Positions 53,924-64,000 of a DNA stretch of 64,000 bases are shown piece by piece. How positions within the stretch are numbered: the stretch's first letter is position 1; every line of letters begins with the position of its first letter. Under the pieces are notes generated by a model. It was not told the DNA's origin. It made no database searches and saw only the letters and a program-made list of their open reading frames with translations. Source of the DNA: Deltaproteobacteria bacterium (GTDB lineage: Bacteria > Desulfobacterota > Desulfarculia > Adiutricales > Adiutricaceae); the NCBI GenBank assembly GCA_031265205.1, contig JAISCZ010000130.1, positions 62,001 to 126,000 of the forward strand, given 5' to 3'. The position numbers and the translations under genes are program-made.

Positions 53924-54240
53924 TTTTTTTCTTCCTTGGGGGTTCGCGCGCCACAAGCGCCCTAGCGCGACCCTTTTCGTCTGGACCGGTCTACCGCCGC
54001 GTCTCGCCGCGCCTCGCCTCGCCGCGCCGCGCCGCGCCGCGCGAGGCGGGCCCCTTTGGCCGCGGGCGTCCCGCGCAAGTTAGCGCTTTTTAACCCTCCA
54101 AATACTAACTCGTGAAATTTAATTTCGCAAACTTAAAGCGCGCCCTGGCGCGCCAAGCCCGCCGGACGGCCAAGCGGCGACCGTTCCCCAAAAGCGCGGA
54201 AGGATCCCCGCCCGTCGCCCTGAACGCGCCGCGACGCGCC

Positions 54241-54269
54241 TTAACAAAAGCTTTTTCCTGTGCTAAAAT
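54241..54269 (+). promoter_or_regulatory. promoter of ahbC-ahbD-ahbA
   Basis: TTAACA, a 17-base spacer and TAAAAT with extended TG stand 53 bases before the ahbC ATG. This supports the later start codon of ahbC. The divergent region 53924-54240 is otherwise CCGCG-rich with no gene. Confidence 0.7.
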
Positions 54270-54321
54270 CCGTTTTAGGTCACGCCGTTGTGGCCCTTTT
54301 TTTGGGAAAGCTTGGGCTTTA

Positions 54322-55548
54322 ATGATCGGAATCTCCAAATTATACTGCGGCGCCGTGGAACCGTCGGATCTCCTCCGCTACGGCGGGCGCTCCCAAAATC
54401 TGCCCAGCCACCTTTTACAGTTTTCCACGGACAAAAAACCGGTCATCGCCTGGAACGTTACCCGCGCCTGCAACCTTTCCTGCCTTCACTGCTACGCCTC
54501 GGCCACCGCCGGCCCAGCCCCCGACGAGCTTTCTCTCGCCGAGGCCCGCGCTTTGGTTGAGAGCCTCGCCGCTTTCGGGGTTCCGGTCATCCTTTTTTCC
54601 GGGGGCGAGCCCCTCCTTCATCCCCACATCTTTGAGCTGATCTCCCTGGCCGTTTCCCGAGGCCTGCGGGCCGTGCTTTCCACCAACGGGCTTTTAATAA
54701 CCCCGGACGTGGCCTCCCGCCTCAAGGATATCGGCCTTTCCTACGTGGGCGTCAGCCTGGACGGCCTCGCGGCCCATCACGACTGGATGCGCCGCAAGCC
54801 CGGGGCCTTTGGCAAAACCATGGAAGGCATTTCCACCTGCCTTTCCAAGGGCCTCAAGGTGGGCTTGAGGCTCACCATCGCCCGCAGCAACCAAAACGAT
54901 ATCGGCGGCCTTTTCGATCTCATGGCCGAGCGTGATATCCCCCGGGCCTGCTTCTACCACCTCGTGGACACCGGCCAAAACCCCGCCCTCGCCCAAGAGG
55001 CCTTAACGCTCGCGGAAACCCGCCAGGCGGTGGATCTCATCGCGGCGCGGACCCTTGCCCTCTTCCAAAAGGGCCAGCGCCCCGAAGTTCTCACCGTGGA
55101 CAACCAGGCGGACGGACCCTATATTTACCTAAAGCTCCGCGCCGAGGGAAACCTCGAAAGGGCCGAAAAGGCCCTCGAGCTTTTAAAGCTCAACGGGGGC
55201 TCCAGCTCGGGCTTGGGCGTCGGCTGCGTTTCCTGGAACGGGGACGTCTTTCCGGACCAGTTCTGGCGCTCCTTAAAGTTGGGCTCCACGCGGGAAAAAC
55301 CCTTTCCGGCCATTTGGACGGATCCGCGCGACGAGTTTCTGATGGCCCTCAAAAACAAAAAAGACCACCTGACCGGACGCTGCCGGGAATGCCGTTTTCT
55401 CGACGCCTGCGGCGGGGGCTTGCGCGCGCGCGCCGCCCAAGCCACGGGAGACGTCTGGGCCCCGGATCCCGCCTGCTATCTCACGGACGAGGAGACGCGC
55501 CTCCCCTCTCCCCTCTACGCCGCCGCCGAGCGCAATGCCGCGAGCTAA
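54322..55548 (+). CDS. ahbC: 12,18-didecarboxysiroheme deacetylase AhbC (radical SAM)
   Basis: The 408-residue radical SAM enzyme starts MIGISKLYCGAVEPSDLLRYGG, a near signature for AhbC/NirJ-like proteins. CNLSCLHCYASA (~52-63) is the CxxxCxxC cluster motif and SGGEPLLHP binds SAM. A C-terminal SPASM-like set of cysteines follows (GVGCVSWNG, CRECRFLDACGG). It removes the acetate side chains to give Fe-coproporphyrin III. ATG at 54322 was chosen from this conserved N-terminus and the promoter at 54241-54269. It overlaps ahbD by 14 bases. Confidence 0.92.
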   Translation: MIGISKLYCGAVEPSDLLRYGGRSQNLPSHLLQFSTDKKPVIAWNVTRACNLSCLHCYASATAGPAPDELSLAEARALVESLAAFGVPVILFSGGEPLLHPHIFELISLAVSRGLRAVLSTNGLLITPDVASRLKDIGLSYVGVSLDGLAAHHDWMRRKPGAFGKTMEGISTCLSKGLKVGLRLTIARSNQNDIGGLFDLMAERDIPRACFYHLVDTGQNPALAQEALTLAETRQAVDLIAARTLALFQKGQRPEVLTVDNQADGPYIYLKLRAEGNLERAEKALELLKLNGGSSSGLGVGCVSWNGDVFPDQFWRSLKLGSTREKPFPAIWTDPRDEFLMALKNKKDHLTGRCRECRFLDACGGGLRARAAQATGDVWAPDPACYLTDEETRLPSPLYAAAERNAAS

Positions 55549-56584
55549 TCTCCCGCCGCCCCGCCTCGTGGCCTGGGAGACCACCCGGGCCTGCGATTTG
55601 GCGTGCCGCCACTGCCGCGCCGAGGCGCGGCCCGGGCCCGCCCCGGGGGAACTGGACGCGAAAGAGGGCGCGGAACTCTTGCGGCAAATCTCCCTGTGGG
55701 ATCCGCCCCCCATGGTCATTCTCTCCGGGGGAGAGCCTTTAAAGCGGCCCGATATCCTAGAATTGGCCTCCCTGGGGACCTCCCTGGGGCTCAGGATGCT
55801 CCTTTCCACCAACGGGACCGCGCTTGACCCGTCCCTCGTCCGCGCGCTCAAAAAGGCGGGGATCAAACGCCTCAGCCTCAGCCTCGACGGCCACGACGCG
55901 GCCAGCCACGACGCCTTCCGGGGAGTTCGGGGGGCCTTCGCGAGCCTTAAAAGGAGCGCGCGGCTCCTCGTGGAAGGCGACCTCCCCTTTCAGATCAATT
56001 CCACCGTCACCGCCGGCAATTTAAAGGATCTCGTCGCGATCCAGGATCTGGCCTTCTCCCTGGGCGCCGTGGCCCACCATATCTTTCTGCTGGTCCCCGT
56101 GGGCCGGGCCAAAGACTGGGACGAGGCCCCCTTGGAACCCCAGGACTACGAAAACGCCCTCCTCCTTTTAAAAGACCGCGAGATCTCCCTTCAGCTCGAA
56201 ATCAAAGCCACCTGCGCCCCGCAGTACCAGCGGATCTCCCGGGAAAAAGGCCAAGTCTCGGCCCGCTCCGGTCGGGGCTGCCTGGGCGGGCAGGGCTTTC
56301 TCTTTATTAGCCACGACGGGATCGCCCAGGCCTGCGGCTATTTGCCCCTCCCCGCCGGAAACGTCCGCGCCGAACCCTTGCGGGAAATCTACCAAAACTC
56401 CCCGCTTTTCGGGGATCTGCGCGATCGCGCGCGCTATCGCGGCAAATGCGGCCTCTGCGAGTATTTTAAGGTCTGCGGCGGCTGCCGGGCCCGCGCCCAC
56501 GCCCAAGGGGATTGTCTGGGCCCGGAGCCACTGTGCCCCCATCTTCCCCAGGCCCTCCGAAGGAGCCCCGATGTCGCCCCATAG
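55535..56584 (+). CDS. ahbD: haem synthase AhbD (radical SAM)
   Basis: The 349-residue radical SAM enzyme has CDLACRHCRAEA (CxxxCxxC, ~21-32), LSGGEPLKRPD and the C-terminal auxiliary-cluster cysteines GRGCLGG, CGYLP, CGLCEYFKVCGGCRARA. AhbD converts the two propionates of Fe-coproporphyrin III to vinyl groups, giving haem b. Overlaps with ahbC (14 bases) and ahbA (14 bases) show tight translational coupling. A peptide-modifying SPASM enzyme is less likely given the context. Confidence 0.9.
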   Translation: MPRANLPPPRLVAWETTRACDLACRHCRAEARPGPAPGELDAKEGAELLRQISLWDPPPMVILSGGEPLKRPDILELASLGTSLGLRMLLSTNGTALDPSLVRALKKAGIKRLSLSLDGHDAASHDAFRGVRGAFASLKRSARLLVEGDLPFQINSTVTAGNLKDLVAIQDLAFSLGAVAHHIFLLVPVGRAKDWDEAPLEPQDYENALLLLKDREISLQLEIKATCAPQYQRISREKGQVSARSGRGCLGGQGFLFISHDGIAQACGYLPLPAGNVRAEPLREIYQNSPLFGDLRDRARYRGKCGLCEYFKVCGGCRARAHAQGDCLGPEPLCPHLPQALRRSPDVAP

Positions 56585-57053
56585 CCTCTCCGCGACCGAG
56601 CGTCTCATTTTAAACGACATTCAGGACCGCTTTCCCGCCGTCAGCCGCCCTTTCCAAGAGGTGGCCGAACGCCTCAACAAGGAGCGCGGCCTGGCCCTCA
56701 CCGAGGAAGAGGTCCTGGAAAAGGTCGCCGCCCTCAAAAAGAAAGGCTATTTCCGCAGGCTTGGAGCCATTTTCAATTCCCGGCCCTTAGGCTACCTTTC
56801 GACGCTCTGCGCGGCCAAGGTCCCCCCGGAGAAAATCGAGGAGTTCGGGGCCCTGGTCAATTCCTATCCCCAAACAACCCACAACTACGTCCGGAACAAC
56901 CCCTTAAACCTGTGGTTTACCTTCTGCTACGCTGACCCCATGGAACTGGAGTCCTTTTTAAGGGATATCAGGGAAAAAACGGGGATAACCGCTATTTTTG
57001 AGCTGAAATCCCGGAAAATCTTCAAAATCAGGGCGGTTTTCGACGTAACTTAA
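56571..57053 (+). CDS. ahbA: siroheme decarboxylase subunit AhbA
   Basis: The 160-residue Lrp/AsnC-like protein has an HTH-like region (LNDIQDRFPAVSRPFQEVAERL) and the AhbA marks GYFRRLGAIFNSRPLGYLSTL, TTHNYVRNNPLNLWFTFCYA and a final KIFKIRAVFDV. It forms a heterodimer with AhbB. It is the last gene of the ahbC-ahbD-ahbA unit. The A/B assignment follows these motifs (THNYxR for A, SHCY…WPYNLYTM for B). Confidence 0.88.
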   Translation: MSPHSLSATERLILNDIQDRFPAVSRPFQEVAERLNKERGLALTEEEVLEKVAALKKKGYFRRLGAIFNSRPLGYLSTLCAAKVPPEKIEEFGALVNSYPQTTHNYVRNNPLNLWFTFCYADPMELESFLRDIREKTGITAIFELKSRKIFKIRAVFDVT

Positions 57054-57449: not shown

Positions 57450-58209
57450 GTCGCGCCGTCAGGCGCCGAACCCCCGCCACGCGCGCCATAGGTCGCGGCT
57501 AGCGCGAACCGGAAATAGCGATAGATGAACTTGCCTATGTTGGGGCTGAAAAGGCGGGCCCCTCTTAGCGCCCGAGCGAAAACGCGTGTCCACCTAAAGG
57601 CGGCCTCTGGCGCCACAGCGAAGTCGCCGCGCGAAGGACCTCTGGTCTTAGGCGCCTTAAGCCTCCCGCTATCTTCCGGCCGAAGACAGCTTTGCCGGAC
57701 GCTTGGCGGAGGCAAGTTTTTTTGAGGATCTCCGCGCGCCACGAATCATTTAAGTTCTCCGCGCGAACCGACACCCATCGCCGGCATCGCGCCTCAGCCG
57801 GGAAATGGGCCCGAAATGGGTCCGTTCTGGCTGAGGCGAAGGGGCTTTAGGCGCGAAGAAGTACTTATCCGCCGGACCCGCGAGTCAACTTTGAGGAACG
57901 CCAACAAGCGACGGAACTTCGGGGGGTGAGCCAGACCTCGCGTAGCGTCCGCTTTTTAAAAGAGCCAATTCGACCATATATCCGCGCGGGTGTTAAAGCT
58001 TCGCTCCAAAGACGACTCCAAATATCCAAATAGCCGTGAACGGATGCGAAAAAGATCAACATATTTTACGAAAAGTTGTAAATTATTGAAAATTATCGAT
58101 ATTTTTCTTGAAATTTTTAAAAAAATTGAATTTTTTCTCAAAATTCAGTTTTTTTGCCTCTTACGGTATAATTTTTCCGGGATTTTAGGTAATAAGTAAA
58201 GACAAAATT
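57450..58209. other. island boundary region, no gene seen
   Basis: The first part is GC-rich and contains an inverted repeat (CGCCTCAGCC at 57790-57799 with GGCTGAGGCG at 57829-57838) enclosing two GAAATGGG copies. From about 58050 the DNA turns strongly AT-rich with long A and T runs. A TATAAT-like box occurs at about 58167-58172. No gene is recognisable. Confidence 0.5.
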
Positions 58210-58520
58210 CTACCATTTATTGGGATGGGTAATAGCAAGTACACGCATACCATTATCTTCATATAAAACAAAGTCAACGCGCGGCTTGTCTCTCAAGTCT
58301 ACGCTGGCGCGCTCTGGCTGGGGAAACGCTGTTGTACTGACCACTTTGCGCGGGGGTTGGTCGGTTACGCCAAGCACGAGTTTACCGCTACCGCAGTTTG
58401 GTAACGCACAGCAAATTTCCAACGCGTCTTTGAAGCTACCTGTTGTCTTCCATTCTTTGAATTGGTAATGCTCACCCTCTGTCGCATTCAGCGGTTGTTC
58501 TATGTATCATGTTTCTTCAT
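58210..58520 (-). pseudogene. truncated, frameshifted AlbA_2/Schlafen-like domain
   Basis: AGGAGG and ATG at 58520 open a frame that stops after six codons (MKKHDT). A second frame from about 58500 reads EGEHYQFKEWKTTGSFKDALE, then CGSGKLVLGV and FVLYEDNGMRVLAITHP. This resembles the AlbA_2 domain found in Schlafen-like ATP-binding regulators (E-F-K-E, then LLxGV, then VLxIxxP). It ends by a stop right after that domain, far short of the usual 400-500 residues. So it is a remnant with a frameshift and a lost C-terminus, placed directly after gajB on the same strand. Confidence 0.5.
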
Positions 58521-58604
58521 ACTACAGTCCCTCCTGATTCATTGCCATACACAGCTTTGGTGTCTTCTGAATCTATTTGGCGCAAATCATTACTTGCAAT
58601 CGGG

Positions 58605-60425
58605 TTATAATTCATCGTTAGCATTTATCGGCTTCAAGCCATCAATCTTTGCCAAGCAACACAGCTTTCCGTTTGTAAATTGCCGCCCTTGTGCGTTGAA
58701 CCTCTCGGCGCTTGCTGATATAAAAGCTTGTTTTTTAGCTCTTGTTAACCCTACATAAAACACACTTAAGTCGCCTAAAATCGTAGTTGTCATATCACTT
58801 GGAATAGTCTGTGGCAGACGGCAATAGCATATTGAGGAATTATTCTTATCAGCGCTGGTACAATTTTGGCAAATGAATGTATACACCCATTGTTCAACAT
58901 CGCAGAGAACCACATAGTCCCATTCAAGCCCTTTAGCTCCATGCACCGTGGACATAATTACTTTAGAGTCAACATACTCCAGCGCCTGCTTCAATTGTCG
59001 GTTCTCAAAAATATCCAGAAGTAGCGTGTACTTATCTTCATGAAGAAGGTCTGAATAATCGATGGAAACTTTCTCAATTTGCGCGTAAAGTAGTCGGAGC
59101 AAAGAGTCAACTGTTTTTCCCGTTTCCGATGTATAAACAGTTTTAACGCTATTGAAGAACGCTGACAGAGTCTTTTTGTTGATGTTTTTGGATTGTCCGA
59201 ATCTTTTGATAAACATCTCTTGGCATTTGTTGTGAAAATCGACGTAGTCGGCATCATCATCAGTAAACATACCATAGAAATAGGGCGCGCCTTTGGTAGA
59301 AAGTTCAGTTTCCACAATTTCAGCATTTTTGCCGCGAACTCGGAAAAGGATAGCAATTTTTACGGTTCCATCAGAAATCAAACTTTGAACTTTGGCTACA
59401 ACTTGCTCTGCTTCTTTTTGCTGCGTTTTTCCCCAGAATGTAGGTAGTTTTGCGATATCTACATCATAAATTGTGGGAGCAAAGCAGGTGGCAGCGTTTG
59501 CTCTGATGTTTTGATTAAGTTTCAGCATTTCAGGATTATCACGGAAGCGATAATTCTTTGAAAGCGCAATTTTCGTCATACAGTACTTCTTGCTGGCTTT
59601 AGACATTATATCCGGCAATGCACCCATAAAACCGTAAATACGCTGGAGAGGATCGCCGAGAAACACAAGTTGAGATTCATCAGTAATAATCTCCTCAAGC
59701 AAGCTCCATGCTATGCAGTTCGTATCTTGAAACTCATCTACAACAATGAGGGGATAGAACCTCTGATAGAATTTCTTAACCTCCGTATGGTTGAAGAAGA
59801 TTTGAAGAACAAACAGAATAACTGCGTTGTGAGTAACGTACTCCTGCGGGAGCAACTTCTTTATGACAAGCTTATTATATATTTTGATTGTTTGTTCATC
59901 GGGGACACAGGATTTTTTTATAGCGGATTCTACGGATTTGAGGCTTTTAAGTTCATCGCTGGATAAAGATGTTTTAAGGCTGGGATGCTTTTCAATTTCA
60001 CTTTCACCGACAGCACGGAAAAGATTGATGTCTTTTTCCAAGGCATCGGAAATAAGGTATCCGTACTTCTTCAGAATTCCTTTGCAGAATCCGTGATAAT
60101 TCGTAACCGCCACTTTTTCGCTTAATGATACTGGATTATTATGGGAACCAAGTAAAGCGGGCAATTTCTCAGCGATTTCGCGCTTCACTTTCATGGCGGC
60201 ATTTATACTGAAAGTTAGGCCGAGAATTCGCTTTGGGGTGGGTATCCCACCAGAAGCAAGCAGGTAAGCAATCCTGCTTATCATCATCGTAGTCTTACCA
60301 TACCCTGCAGGGGCTTCCACTATCAAGCGTGGGCTGTCAGAGAAAATCATTTCAAGTTGTTTTTCATCGCCCTCGTGCCGCGCTGATATTTTGTCCTTAA
60401 GTTCCGCAAGAGTGGTGTTAGGCAT
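58605..60425 (-). CDS. gajB: Gabija GajB-like UvrD/Rep helicase
   Basis: The 606-residue superfamily 1A helicase has Walker A EAPAGYGKTT (~37-46), motif Ia LGLTFSINAA, Walker B VVDEFQDTN, motif III FLGDPLQRIYGF, motif IV NYRFRDNP, motif V STVHGAKGLEWDYVV and motif VI FYVGLTRAKKQAF. All appear intact. In Gabija, GajB senses DNA termini and activates or assists GajA. ATG at 60425 has a strong AGGAGG and overlaps the gajA stop by eight bases. Codon use and GC are clearly lower than in the flanking chromosome. Confidence 0.85.
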   Translation of the reverse strand: MPNTTLAELKDKISARHEGDEKQLEMIFSDSPRLIVEAPAGYGKTTMMISRIAYLLASGGIPTPKRILGLTFSINAAMKVKREIAEKLPALLGSHNNPVSLSEKVAVTNYHGFCKGILKKYGYLISDALEKDINLFRAVGESEIEKHPSLKTSLSSDELKSLKSVESAIKKSCVPDEQTIKIYNKLVIKKLLPQEYVTHNAVILFVLQIFFNHTEVKKFYQRFYPLIVVDEFQDTNCIAWSLLEEIITDESQLVFLGDPLQRIYGFMGALPDIMSKASKKYCMTKIALSKNYRFRDNPEMLKLNQNIRANAATCFAPTIYDVDIAKLPTFWGKTQQKEAEQVVAKVQSLISDGTVKIAILFRVRGKNAEIVETELSTKGAPYFYGMFTDDDADYVDFHNKCQEMFIKRFGQSKNINKKTLSAFFNSVKTVYTSETGKTVDSLLRLLYAQIEKVSIDYSDLLHEDKYTLLLDIFENRQLKQALEYVDSKVIMSTVHGAKGLEWDYVVLCDVEQWVYTFICQNCTSADKNNSSICYCRLPQTIPSDMTTTILGDLSVFYVGLTRAKKQAFISASAERFNAQGRQFTNGKLCCLAKIDGLKPINANDEL

Positions 60426-62175
60426 TTGTTGCCACCTCCTGCGCCCTTTTAATTGCATTTCTATAACAAACAGGGATGAGTTCAGGAGGAATCGCGTGGC
60501 CGATAATGCGCCCGAGCAAAACACCTTTCTTGGCCATGAACCATGCTGAAAACATCAGGCAAAATTCTTTTTTATCTGTGTTGCTTACATCAGACAACTT
60601 CTTGGGTTTATAATTACAATCGGTGGCGTCAACACCCATTTTTTTAAAATATTTCTTTACAAAATTCAAGTCCATTACTATCGATTCGGCTTTGTTGTCC
60701 AAATCCAAGGCAATCTGCCTGACAAGAGAAAACTCCCCGCCTGTAACTAATGTCTTTACAATCTCAATTTCAAAACACGGTTCGGTGGTAAAAAATTCAT
60801 CAACTGGCGCCGTATGCCCTGCTTTCACATCTCCATCATATATTGCGACGCTTGGAACGGCGAATAAGATCAGCAATTGACGCAAAGGCTTTATTGAACC
60901 CTCGCCCCGCGCATTAATCACGCAGATGCCGTAGTCATCTAAGGCAATGCCGATTTTATTGGCAAAAGAGTGGATGCACCCGTACTCAGTTTCTCCTTCT
61001 ATCAAAACAGCACATTTGGAATAGAACGCTTCTTTGATTTCTGGAAAATGCATTATCAGGCGCTTTTCGTCCCCAGCCTTGATTCTTCCTACATTGTCAG
61101 TATGTTCAATTGGACGCAAGGAATAGCCGCTTACGACTGCGGTTTTTGCAACATCTTTGTAAAAGCGGATCAGGTTACGGTAATCTCCGACCAATGCGTC
61201 AGTCGAATGCGTAACGATAATCAACTGTCCGTCGATGCCATCCAGGTCAAAGCAGCTTTTCAATAGCTCGGCGAACTCAGTGTCCTGATTACGCAAGATT
61301 CGCTTGAAATACCCAATGAGCGATCGTTGCAGATATGGATGCAGATGAACTTCCGGTTCATCGATGGACAGAACGAGAGGCAACAATTTTTTCCCTTCCT
61401 CGTCAGTATAAAGTTGGTCGTCAAAAGGCATCGACTTGCTTTTATATAGCTCCATTATCTGGGAAAGTATATTTATCGATGCCATCGCCATATACTGAAC
61501 ACCGCTACCCGTAGCGTCAATCTTGCGGTCGCCGTCGGATAGATAAAACAGGCTTGTAAGCATTTCTGTCGGGTTCGAAGCGATTGTCGCTTCGATAGAG
61601 TAGTCACGGAAACTACGTATTTTGCCAAGGTGACTGTTGATGAAATCCTTTAATCCTCCCACTTGCGCGTCGTTCAAAAACGAGTTAACGCCTTCTGCGA
61701 TATAGCGTTCTATGATTGCATTTATAAACAGACCCGCACCCTTTTGTGAGTCGAGGCGCAACTCTCTGCTTGGGATAGAGGTGGTCTCATATTTAAGGAA
61801 GTTGATTTTTTTTATCTGTCTTGCTGTTATGGTTTCTTTCGAATCAGCACTAACGATTGACGGATAGGCTTCTTAAATGGACTGATAATACCTGATTGTA
61901 AGCATTGAAGCGTCATCAGGCGAAAAGTTGTCTCCGAAAAAGCCCTGCTCACTTGGGAGTAGCTTTATATCCAATTCAACTTCAATGGCTTTTTCGGGGT
62001 CAGCATAGTCCTTCTCGTCGAACCCTTTGCCGCTGCAAACAATTCCGAGGAGTGACAGAAAGTTGCTTTTTCCCAAGTTGTTCTCCCCGATTATGTAATT
62101 GCAATCGGGGTTGAAACATACAGATATCCCGTCAATATTCCTGAAGTTGTTAACCCTAATATCGGTAATCCTCAT
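60418..62175 (-). pseudogene. gajA: Gabija GajA-like OLD nuclease, interrupted by one stop codon
   Basis: The frame runs 586 codons with a single in-frame TAA at codon 101 (61873-61875). Codons 1-100 give the OLD-family ATPase start: ITDIRVNNFRNIDGISV and Walker A IGENNLGKSNFLSLLG. After the stop the same frame continues without a shift: EAYPSIVSADSKETITARQ…, ATGSGVQYMAMASINIL (signature), LVLSIDEPEVHLHP (Walker B), VTHSTDAL, then a TOPRIM domain with VLIEGETEYG and AIYDGDVKAG (Glu and DxD). Total length is close to that of GajA (~578). Either a recent nonsense mutation or a sequence error; TTG at 61761 could restart translation of the last 447 codons. Confidence 0.8.
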
Positions 62176-62973
62176 AAAATCTCCTGCGGAATAGATATTT
62201 CTACCTTATTCCTCAAAATTCCTCAAATCTCAAAATGCGTTGATGCCGTCGCGACTATTCAGGAGCACATCCCCCAAATCTGGAGATTTTCCCATTAAGG
62301 CGGGGTGGGGCGTGTGGCCAAGAGCGAGGTTAGCGAAACGCTGATCGCCAAATAATGTTTGATATATCAGGCGTTTATTAGCATATATCTTTTAACATAG
62401 TTCCTTTTATATATCAAATTAGTACACGTTAATGGGCAATACTGTTCATTTTACAAATATAACAGTTTCGTTCACGGAGAGGACTGGGTTCACTTGGAAG
62501 GCGCGACTCGCAAGTCGGCATCTGGCGCCATAAAGTGGCCAGTGTAGTCCAGGCATCGGAGGCGTCTCATGAATCCGTTAATGGGCGAGCAGTGAGATCG
62601 TGAAATGGTGGGAGGTCGGGCAAAGAGGCTTGGTGAGCCGTGAACGGATACCATTTTTTTATTGTTTGGGTGATGGTTTCAGTGTGGTCCTAGTAAGTCC
62701 AAAAGAGATGAATGCCTCATAAGATTGAATACTGTAAACTCAAAAATAAATTGAATAAACCCGGAATACACCTGAATGGTTACGAATGAAGGTTATGTTT
62801 TTTAAAATTTTCTCTCCTTAAAACTAAATTCAAGGAGATAAATGGCATTTTTGGCATTTAGGACCTGACTAATTACAAAAAACACTACAACCAATTACAA
62901 AGTTCAAAGCCTGACGCTATAATTTTCACTATAAAACGAAATTCGGGAATCCAGAAAAAAATCGTGAGTTATC
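62176..62973. other. AT-rich gap upstream of gajA
   Basis: About 800 bases without a recognisable gene. AT-rich stretches at 62350-62470 and 62690-62960 probably hold the gajA promoter. AGGAG precedes the gajA ATG by five bases. Confidence 0.4.
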
Positions 62974-63687
62974 CTACGGATCGTAAGGGCGTGGCTGGAA
63001 TCCTTGGCAGGACGCGTCGAAAATATCAATGGAAAGTTTTTGGAGAACCGCGGTGGTCCTCTCCCAAACCCTCCATTCGGGGCCGAACTCTTCATTGGTT
63101 TCAAGGCGCGCGGTCGCCAAATCGTAAGGAAGCGGGGTGGAAATCATATCCAAGAGCTGGACAAGCAAAAACCGTTCTTCTCTTAGAGAATAGAAACGAT
63201 CGAAATCCTTCAGCGCCGTGGCCGCCATGGAAGCTCCTAACCGAGTGGAAAGCGCCGCCAGATCAACGTAGTCGCGGGTGGAATTTCTTAAAAGAGCGAG
63301 TCCGCACTTGATCCTTAAAATTTCAGCGTCGGATGGCACAATCGTCGATAAACCATCTCGCTCGAAAGATATAGTTTCCAGAGGCAAGATTCTGGACAAC
63401 TGAAACACGGTTACTTCAATCATATATAAATTAACTGAGTTGGAATTCCGAACCTCTGGCCAGGGTCCACGGGAGCCGCTGATGATTTCGAGCTGGCGGA
63501 CAATTTCTTGAGAGTCAGGATATTCGGCCAAGCTGGCGGACGGGGATCCGCCGCCGACAAAATGGGCTCGCGAGCCACAGATTGCGCTTAACGCGGCGTC
63601 CCACGCTGGCATGGGTCTGGAAGAGTCGCCTAGGGGGACGCCTTTGGGAATTGGCGGCAATTTATAGGTAAATACGGGGAATGTCAC
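62974..63687 (-). CDS. nucleotidyltransferase-toxin paralog with lost catalytic motif
   Basis: The 237-residue protein (GTG start) is clearly homologous to the toxin at 25436-26227: PSDAEILRIKCGLALLRNSTRDYVDLAALSTRLGAS, split, aligns with PTEAEILRIKAFLILKRNATRDYLDF, and STPLPYDLATA with SYPLPHDLAET. The N-terminal PAWDAALSAICG also aligns. At the active-site position it reads FVGGGSPSASLAEYPDSQ, so the GGT is changed and the DxD pair is missing. It starts three bases after the stop of the upstream homolog. It may be an inactive toxin relative or an immunity-like decoy. Confidence 0.6.
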   Translation of the reverse strand: MTFPVFTYKLPPIPKGVPLGDSSRPMPAWDAALSAICGSRAHFVGGGSPSASLAEYPDSQEIVRQLEIISGSRGPWPEVRNSNSVNLYMIEVTVFQLSRILPLETISFERDGLSTIVPSDAEILRIKCGLALLRNSTRDYVDLAALSTRLGASMAATALKDFDRFYSLREERFLLVQLLDMISTPLPYDLATARLETNEEFGPEWRVWERTTAVLQKLSIDIFDASCQGFQPRPYDP

Positions 63688-63690
63688 ACG

Positions 63691-64000
63691 CTATGGCCTC
63701 GGTCTAAAGGAGGAGGGTTTTTCTTCCAGGCGGGGGGAATCTGATAAATCAAACGCTAATAGCGTAAGCTGTTTGGCGATATTCTCCCATTTTCGCCATT
63801 TAGGTATAACGTTTTTGTACCCTCCGAGGCTAATTTTATGCAAATCCATAGGCTTCGGCTGACTCAGCCGGCTCTGAAGAAGGCGTAACGCCGACTCACC
63901 ATTTTCTAACGGATAAATCCTATCAAGATCCCGCAACGCGTCGCTTGTTTTTACGGAACCAGCTTTCTCGAACAAAGCCGCCAGATTCAAATAATCTCGC
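63691..64000 (-). CDS. nucleotidyltransferase-toxin paralog (partial, 5' end outside)
   Basis: About 103 codons of the C-terminal part are visible and the gene continues past the right edge. RDYLNLAALFEKAGSVKTSDALRD, IYPLENGESALRLLQ and GGYKNVIPKWRKWENIAKQL, in sequence, match the toxin at 25436-26227 (RDYLDFTAL, YPQESGESALQQL, YKNLAPRWQNWKNVM). The catalytic N-terminus is not in the window, so activity cannot be judged. It is translationally coupled to the next paralog. Confidence 0.65.
   Translation of the reverse strand, partial: RDYLNLAALFEKAGSVKTSDALRDLDRIYPLENGESALRLLQSRLSQPKPMDLHKISLGGYKNVIPKWRKWENIAKQLTLLAFDLSDSPRLEEKPSSFRPRP

What the first reader, a model, noticed from the sequence alone, without database searches (positions are those of the whole stretch)
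60418..62175. Gabija gajA interrupted by a single in-frame TAA
The OLD-ATPase/TOPRIM gene is open over 586 codons except for one TAA at codon 101, with no frameshift. All ATPase and TOPRIM motifs on both sides are preserved, and the overlapping gajB is intact. This suggests a very recent inactivation, phase-variable or conditional expression by restart at TTG 61761, or a sequencing error. TAA rules out selenocysteine or pyrrolysine recoding. The pairing of an OLD nuclease with a UvrD-like helicase as the Gabija arrangement is established knowledge.
Basis: partly seen in the sequence, partly recalled or inferred. Interest (0 to 1): 0.78.

Follow-up and report, generated by a model that had tools for sequence, protein, structure and literature searches.

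The report
Gabija nuclease gene, broken by one stop
This is a known kind of anti-phage defence operon (Gabija) that reached this bacterium from distant bacteria and whose nuclease gene now carries one premature stop codon, most likely a recent ordinary loss of function and possibly a sequencing artefact.

Summary
On the minus strand, gajA (62175-60418) is open for 585 codons except for one TAA at 61875-61873 (codon 101), with no frameshift. The two pieces match the same PADLOC GajA model end to end (positions 1-99 and 104-578), and the overlapping gajB is complete.

Eleven full-length intact relatives read through this site. The stop falls in a freely varying column in a loop. All catalytic motifs remain. 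GajA shows no excess of changes at conserved positions, so the gene was under normal selection until very recently.

No ochre-suppressor tRNA was found, no repeat tract could switch the stop on and off, and no internal start has a plausible ribosome site. Published work shows that TOPRIM-only GajA is inactive and that losing either gene abolishes defence.

The operon lies in a 12-14 kb low-GC island with another gene remnant. Its closest relatives are in Bacillota, Synergistales and viral contigs. Two relatives also have broken gajA genes, at other positions.

Best reading: a horizontally acquired Gabija operon recently inactivated by a nonsense mutation (about 75%). A consensus or strain-mixture error is the main rival (about 20%). 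Phase variation, restart and recoding are not supported. Ordinary; low interest.

The parts
60418..62175 (-). gajA (OLD-family ATPase/TOPRIM nuclease), 585 codons plus stop, interrupted at codon 101; Shine-Dalgarno AGGAG before the ATG
61873..61875 (-). in-frame TAA, codon 101; falls in a loop between two strands in the model of an intact relative, at a variable alignment column
61876..62175 (-). N-terminal piece, 100 aa, with Walker A
   Evidence: PDLC00085 positions 1-99, E 7.5e-42; AAA_15
60421..61872 (-). C-terminal piece, 484 codons, with Walker B, H-loop and TOPRIM; no credible start codon of its own
   Evidence: PDLC00085 positions 104-578, E 5.1e-156; OLD-like_TOPRIM
58605..60425 (-). 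gajB, UvrD-like helicase, 606 aa, intact, strong own Shine-Dalgarno inside the end of gajA
   Evidence: PDLC00107 E 8e-215
58211..58501 (-). remnant of an SLFN_AlbA_2-domain gene, without a standard start codon before the domain and missing the end of the domain
   Evidence: PF04326 positions 1-88 of 118, E 1.1e-5
58050..64000 (.). left part of a low-GC island (about 40-51% G+C against about 60-65% on both sides) that continues past the window end to about contig C178:134000
57174..57360 (+). tRNA-Val(cac) and tRNA-Leu(gag) just left of the island; no attachment-site repeat found

Best explanation
A Gabija operon (gajA nuclease/ATPase and gajB helicase) was acquired horizontally as part of a low-GC island and has recently been inactivated by a single nonsense substitution in gajA. 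Translation from the gajA start ends after 100 residues, so no full-length GajA and no GajA4:GajB4 complex is made. Rho-dependent polarity over the 1.4 kb untranslated remainder may also lower gajB expression. Shown here: the stop, the intact frame on both sides, intact homologues, absence of decay in gajA, foreign island. Inferred: that the stop is real in the cells and that defence is lost.
For: Single in-frame TAA with collinear GajA model matches on both sides. Eleven full-length intact relatives at 60-80% identity, with seven different residues at the site, so it is a tolerant position hit by a stop rather than a recoded conserved residue. On its terminal branch gajA shows 4 of 83 conserved-column departures against an expected share of 8.4% (p 0.93), all four mild (Y/F, F/Y, Y/F, H/R), so no long pseudogene phase. 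gajB shows a mild excess (11 of 65, p 0.011, not corrected for two tests), as relaxed constraint would give. A second gene remnant lies beside it. Two related gajA copies are also broken, a frameshift near codon 107 in L007 and loss of homology after codon 427 in L080, so loss of this gene is not rare. No clear orthologue in 97 related genomes, and island G+C near 40-45% around the operon against about 60-65% outside. Both genes are essential for defence (PMC10822852); TOPRIM-only GajA is inactive (PMC8136825).
Against: The genome is a fragmented assembly (187 contigs, 84.8% complete, 3.7% contamination) and the lesion is one codon, so a consensus error or a minority allele looks the same. gajA shows no decay at all, which fits error as well as recency. 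The gajB excess is weak.
Confidence: 0.75

Rival explanations
1. The TAA is a consensus or strain-mixture error of the assembly and the Gabija operon is intact in most cells.
For: One codon, no other lesion in 1.8 kb of gajA or in gajB, normal conservation on both sides; draft assembly; the frameshifted relative L007 is also in a metagenome-assembled genome.
Against: 0 of 55 ABC-ATPase domain matches (roughly 7,000 codons) in the same genome carries a stop, and none of 37 AAA_21 matches does. Spurious stops are therefore rare, and a random error landing in this one accessory gene is less likely than a real loss. An island with another gene remnant is where real losses are expected.
Confidence: 0.2
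2. Conditional expression: the C-terminal part is made by restart at TTG 61761 (codon 139) or another internal start, and works as a shorter GajA or with the N-terminal piece in trans.
For: TTG, GTG and ATG codons exist downstream (codons 139, 167, 172, 205, 229).
Against: None has a well-placed Shine-Dalgarno. TTG 139 lies in a stretch (PSRELRLD) that is conserved coding sequence in intact relatives. The product lacks Walker A and the region around residues 94-97 that binds GajB in B. cereus (PMC10781630). GajA without its ATPase domain had no activity (PMC8136825).
Confidence: 0.02
3. The stop is read through, by an ochre suppressor tRNA, a recoded genetic code, or programmed readthrough.
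For: Both sides look under normal constraint.
Against: None of the 35 tRNA genes found has a UUA anticodon. TAA terminates ordinary genes including gajB. TAA is not a selenocysteine or pyrrolysine codon. No relative keeps a stop there.
Confidence: 0.02
4. A reversible phase-variable switch.
For: A second relative (L007) has a frameshift only about 7 codons away.
Against: No homopolymer, short tandem repeat or inverted repeat at the site. A nonsense substitution is not a slippage switch. The two lesions differ in kind, and their closeness has a chance of about 3% and was noticed after the fact.
Confidence: 0.01

Closest known systems
Gabija anti-phage system (GajA + GajB), e.g. Bacillus cereus VD045
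   Same: Two-gene operon in the same order, overlapping. OLD-type ATPase with TOPRIM nuclease domain keeping the Glu, Gly and DxD motifs, with a UvrD-like helicase. PADLOC GajA and GajB models hit at E 5e-156 and 8e-215. The model of an intact relative finds solved GajA structures.
   Different: Belongs to a divergent GajA branch (PADLOC PDLC00085): a phmmer search with its C-terminal piece and a profile search found no solved GajA by sequence, only OLD nucleases and Rad50. GajB is about 606 aa against 493-499 for the solved ones. gajA is interrupted.
Pseudogenes in defence systems as catalogued by PADLOC (PMC9252829)
   Same: A defence gene broken by a nonsense codon, described there as a frequent class that may be remnants or sequencing errors.
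   Different: Nothing of substance; this is a further case.
Class 2 OLD nucleases from Xanthomonas and Burkholderia (6njv, 6nk8)
   Same: TOPRIM domain matched by profile and fold.
   Different: About 15% identity over that domain.

Membership tests
Gabija | GajA: OLD-family ABC ATPase plus TOPRIM nuclease | tested here: met
   PDLC00085 on both pieces, AAA_15, OLD-like_TOPRIM; structure model of intact relative L011 matches GajA 8sm3, 8u7i, 8x5i at E about 1e-10, though the whole-chain TM-scores are low because the ATPase half of the model is of low confidence
Gabija | TOPRIM catalytic residues (Glu, Gly, DxD) | tested here: met
   LIEGETEYG, INARGEG, IYDGDV, invariant or nearly so in the 12-sequence alignment; residues named in PMC10781630
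Gabija | Adjacent gajB, UvrD-like SF1 helicase | tested here: met
   PDLC00107 E 8e-215, UvrD-helicase and UvrD_C Pfam domains; the pair is conserved in 11 full-length relatives and present in part in a twelfth, L007, at a contig end
Gabija | GajA translated at full length | tested here: not met
   TAA at codon 101 in the assembled sequence; so it is a Gabija locus, but not a working system as sequenced
Gabija | 4:4 GajA-GajB complex and defence against phage | not testable with these tools
   needs protein and plaque assays
Phase-variable gene | repeat tract or invertible element at the lesion | tested here: not met
Stop-codon recoding | suppressor tRNA or conserved stop in homologues | tested here: not met
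   no UUA anticodon among 35 tRNA genes in an 85% complete genome; homologues have sense codons

The most novel reading that the evidence does not exclude
The region around codons 101-107 of this GajA branch is a recurrent on/off site: the window and one relative carry independent lesions within seven codons of each other, and a split or conditionally read GajA could be a way to keep a costly nuclease silent while conserving it.
Probability: 0.02. Interest if true: 0.55.

Novelty: new member of a known kind. Interest (0 to 1): 0.13.

Why it matters
It adds one more example of a horizontally acquired defence system caught early in decay, which bears on how fast such systems turn over. It does not change what is known of Gabija.

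Tried and rejected
Suppressor tRNA: none found. Internal restart: no credible site. Phase variation: no repeat. Attachment sites: no repeat of the tRNA ends near the island. A 14-nt repeat flanking the operon (58032, 62636) looked like an att site but proved to be a motif scattered in the genome. dN/dS on the window branch: synonymous changes saturated, so replaced by counting departures at conserved columns against branch length. Close sister genomes: no clear orthologue in 97 relatives, in 183 genomes of the order of L002 other than L002's own, or in 398 genomes of the family of L004 beyond L004's and L010's own. No match in phage records or E. coli genomes; only distant ones, 31% or less, in plasmids. 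Full-gene structure model: ATPase half of low confidence, so used only for the general fold and the loop position.

Full report
What was checked. The minus-strand frame 62175-60418 begins with ATG behind an AGGAG ribosome site and is open for 585 codons except for one TAA at 61875-61873, codon 101. No frameshift is present: the 100-residue part matches positions 1-99 and the 484-residue part positions 104-578 of one and the same PADLOC GajA model, and intact relatives align through the site without a gap. gajB follows with an 8-nt overlap and its own strong ribosome site. It matches the PADLOC GajB model over its whole length.

Is it Gabija? Yes by profile, by gene pairing and by motifs. By sequence it lies far from the solved GajA proteins: only OLD nucleases and Rad50-type ATPases are hit in the PDB. 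A model of the intact relative L011 (mean pLDDT 67, good only in the TOPRIM half and part of the N-terminus) finds Thermus OLD and the B. cereus GajA structures as best matches. The same gajA-gajB pair, complete, occurs in 11 related genomes or viral contigs, and a twelfth (L007) holds part of gajB at its contig end.

Where does it come from? The nearest relatives (77-80% identity) are in a Bacillota genome, a Synergistales genome and two IMG/VR contigs, followed by Clostridia, Lachnospiraceae and one Anaerolineaceae genome. A search of 98 genomes (the host's own and 97 relatives) found an orthologue only in the host itself; the other matches were weak, E 1e-6 or worse. The operon lies in a stretch of about 40-50% G+C, from window 58050 to about 8-10 kb past the window end, inside a 146-kb contig with about 60-65% G+C on both sides. 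It is therefore a horizontally acquired island in the host chromosome and not a contaminating contig end. Two tRNA genes lie at its left edge, but no attachment repeat was found.

Is the stop old or new, real or not? The stop column holds K, R, S, T, G, N or D in intact relatives. In the model of the intact relative it lies in a loop between two strands. On protein trees with 12 taxa, the window's gajA has 4 of the 83 departures from otherwise invariant columns, with 8.4% of the terminal branch length (p 0.93), so it has no pseudogene-like excess. gajB has 11 of 65 with 7.8% of the length (p 0.011, uncorrected), a weak hint of relaxed constraint. Among 55 ABC-ATPase domains of the same genome none has an internal stop, so this assembly is not full of spurious stops. 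Next to gajB lies an AlbA_2-domain remnant without a standard start and without its end. Two related gajA copies are broken too: L007 by a single-nucleotide frameshift near codon 107, and L080 by non-homologous sequence after codon 427. These facts favour a real and recent loss; a consensus error cannot be excluded without reads.

What it would do. In B. cereus, GajA and GajB form a 4:4 complex, GajA residues K94 and R97 are needed for binding GajB (PMC10781630), and both genes are essential for defence (PMC10822852). A TOPRIM-only GajA has no nuclease activity (PMC8136825). In the window, translation ends after residue 100. The downstream in-frame ATG, GTG and TTG codons lack well-placed ribosome sites, and any product from them would lack Walker A. 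None of the 35 tRNA genes found has an anticodon for TAA. The expected phenotype is loss of Gabija defence; this is inferred, not tested.

Verdict. Of the listed readings, recent inactivation is best supported, error is second, and phase variation, restart and recoding have evidence against them. Broken defence genes are a recognised class (PMC9252829), so the finding is ordinary.

Noticed in passing
window 58211-58501 (-): Remnant of a Schlafen/AlbA_2-domain gene just downstream of gajB, without a standard start codon and cut before the domain's end; not found next to gajAB in relatives.
   Followed up: partly
L007 5682-6005: The gajA of an uncultured Clostridia genome has a single-nucleotide frameshift near codon 107, about seven codons from the window's stop.
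   Followed up: partly
L080 after 5281: The gajA on an IMG/VR contig loses homology after codon 427, as if by insertion, rearrangement or chimeric assembly.
   Followed up: partly
L025, L026, L079: Intact gajA copies of this branch lie on contigs classed as viral in IMG/VR, with intact gajB checked for L025 and L026, so the operon may travel on mobile elements.
   Followed up: no
window 58032-58045 and 62636-62649: The 14-nt motif AGCCGTGAACGGAT flanks the operon and occurs at two other places in the genome; its 12-nt core occurs eight times against zero for the reversed control. Purpose unknown.
   Followed up: partly
window 62974-63687 (-) and L022 1691-2545 (-): Two adjacent genes with similar C-terminal parts, apparently a tandem duplication; no Pfam match.
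   Followed up: no
L022 4657-5703 and 8079-9338: Two ParB_N-domain genes in the same low-GC island.
   Followed up: no
window 54112-57053 (+): Two radical-SAM/SPASM genes followed by a NirDL-like siroheme decarboxylase gene, suggesting the siroheme-dependent haem pathway.
   Followed up: no
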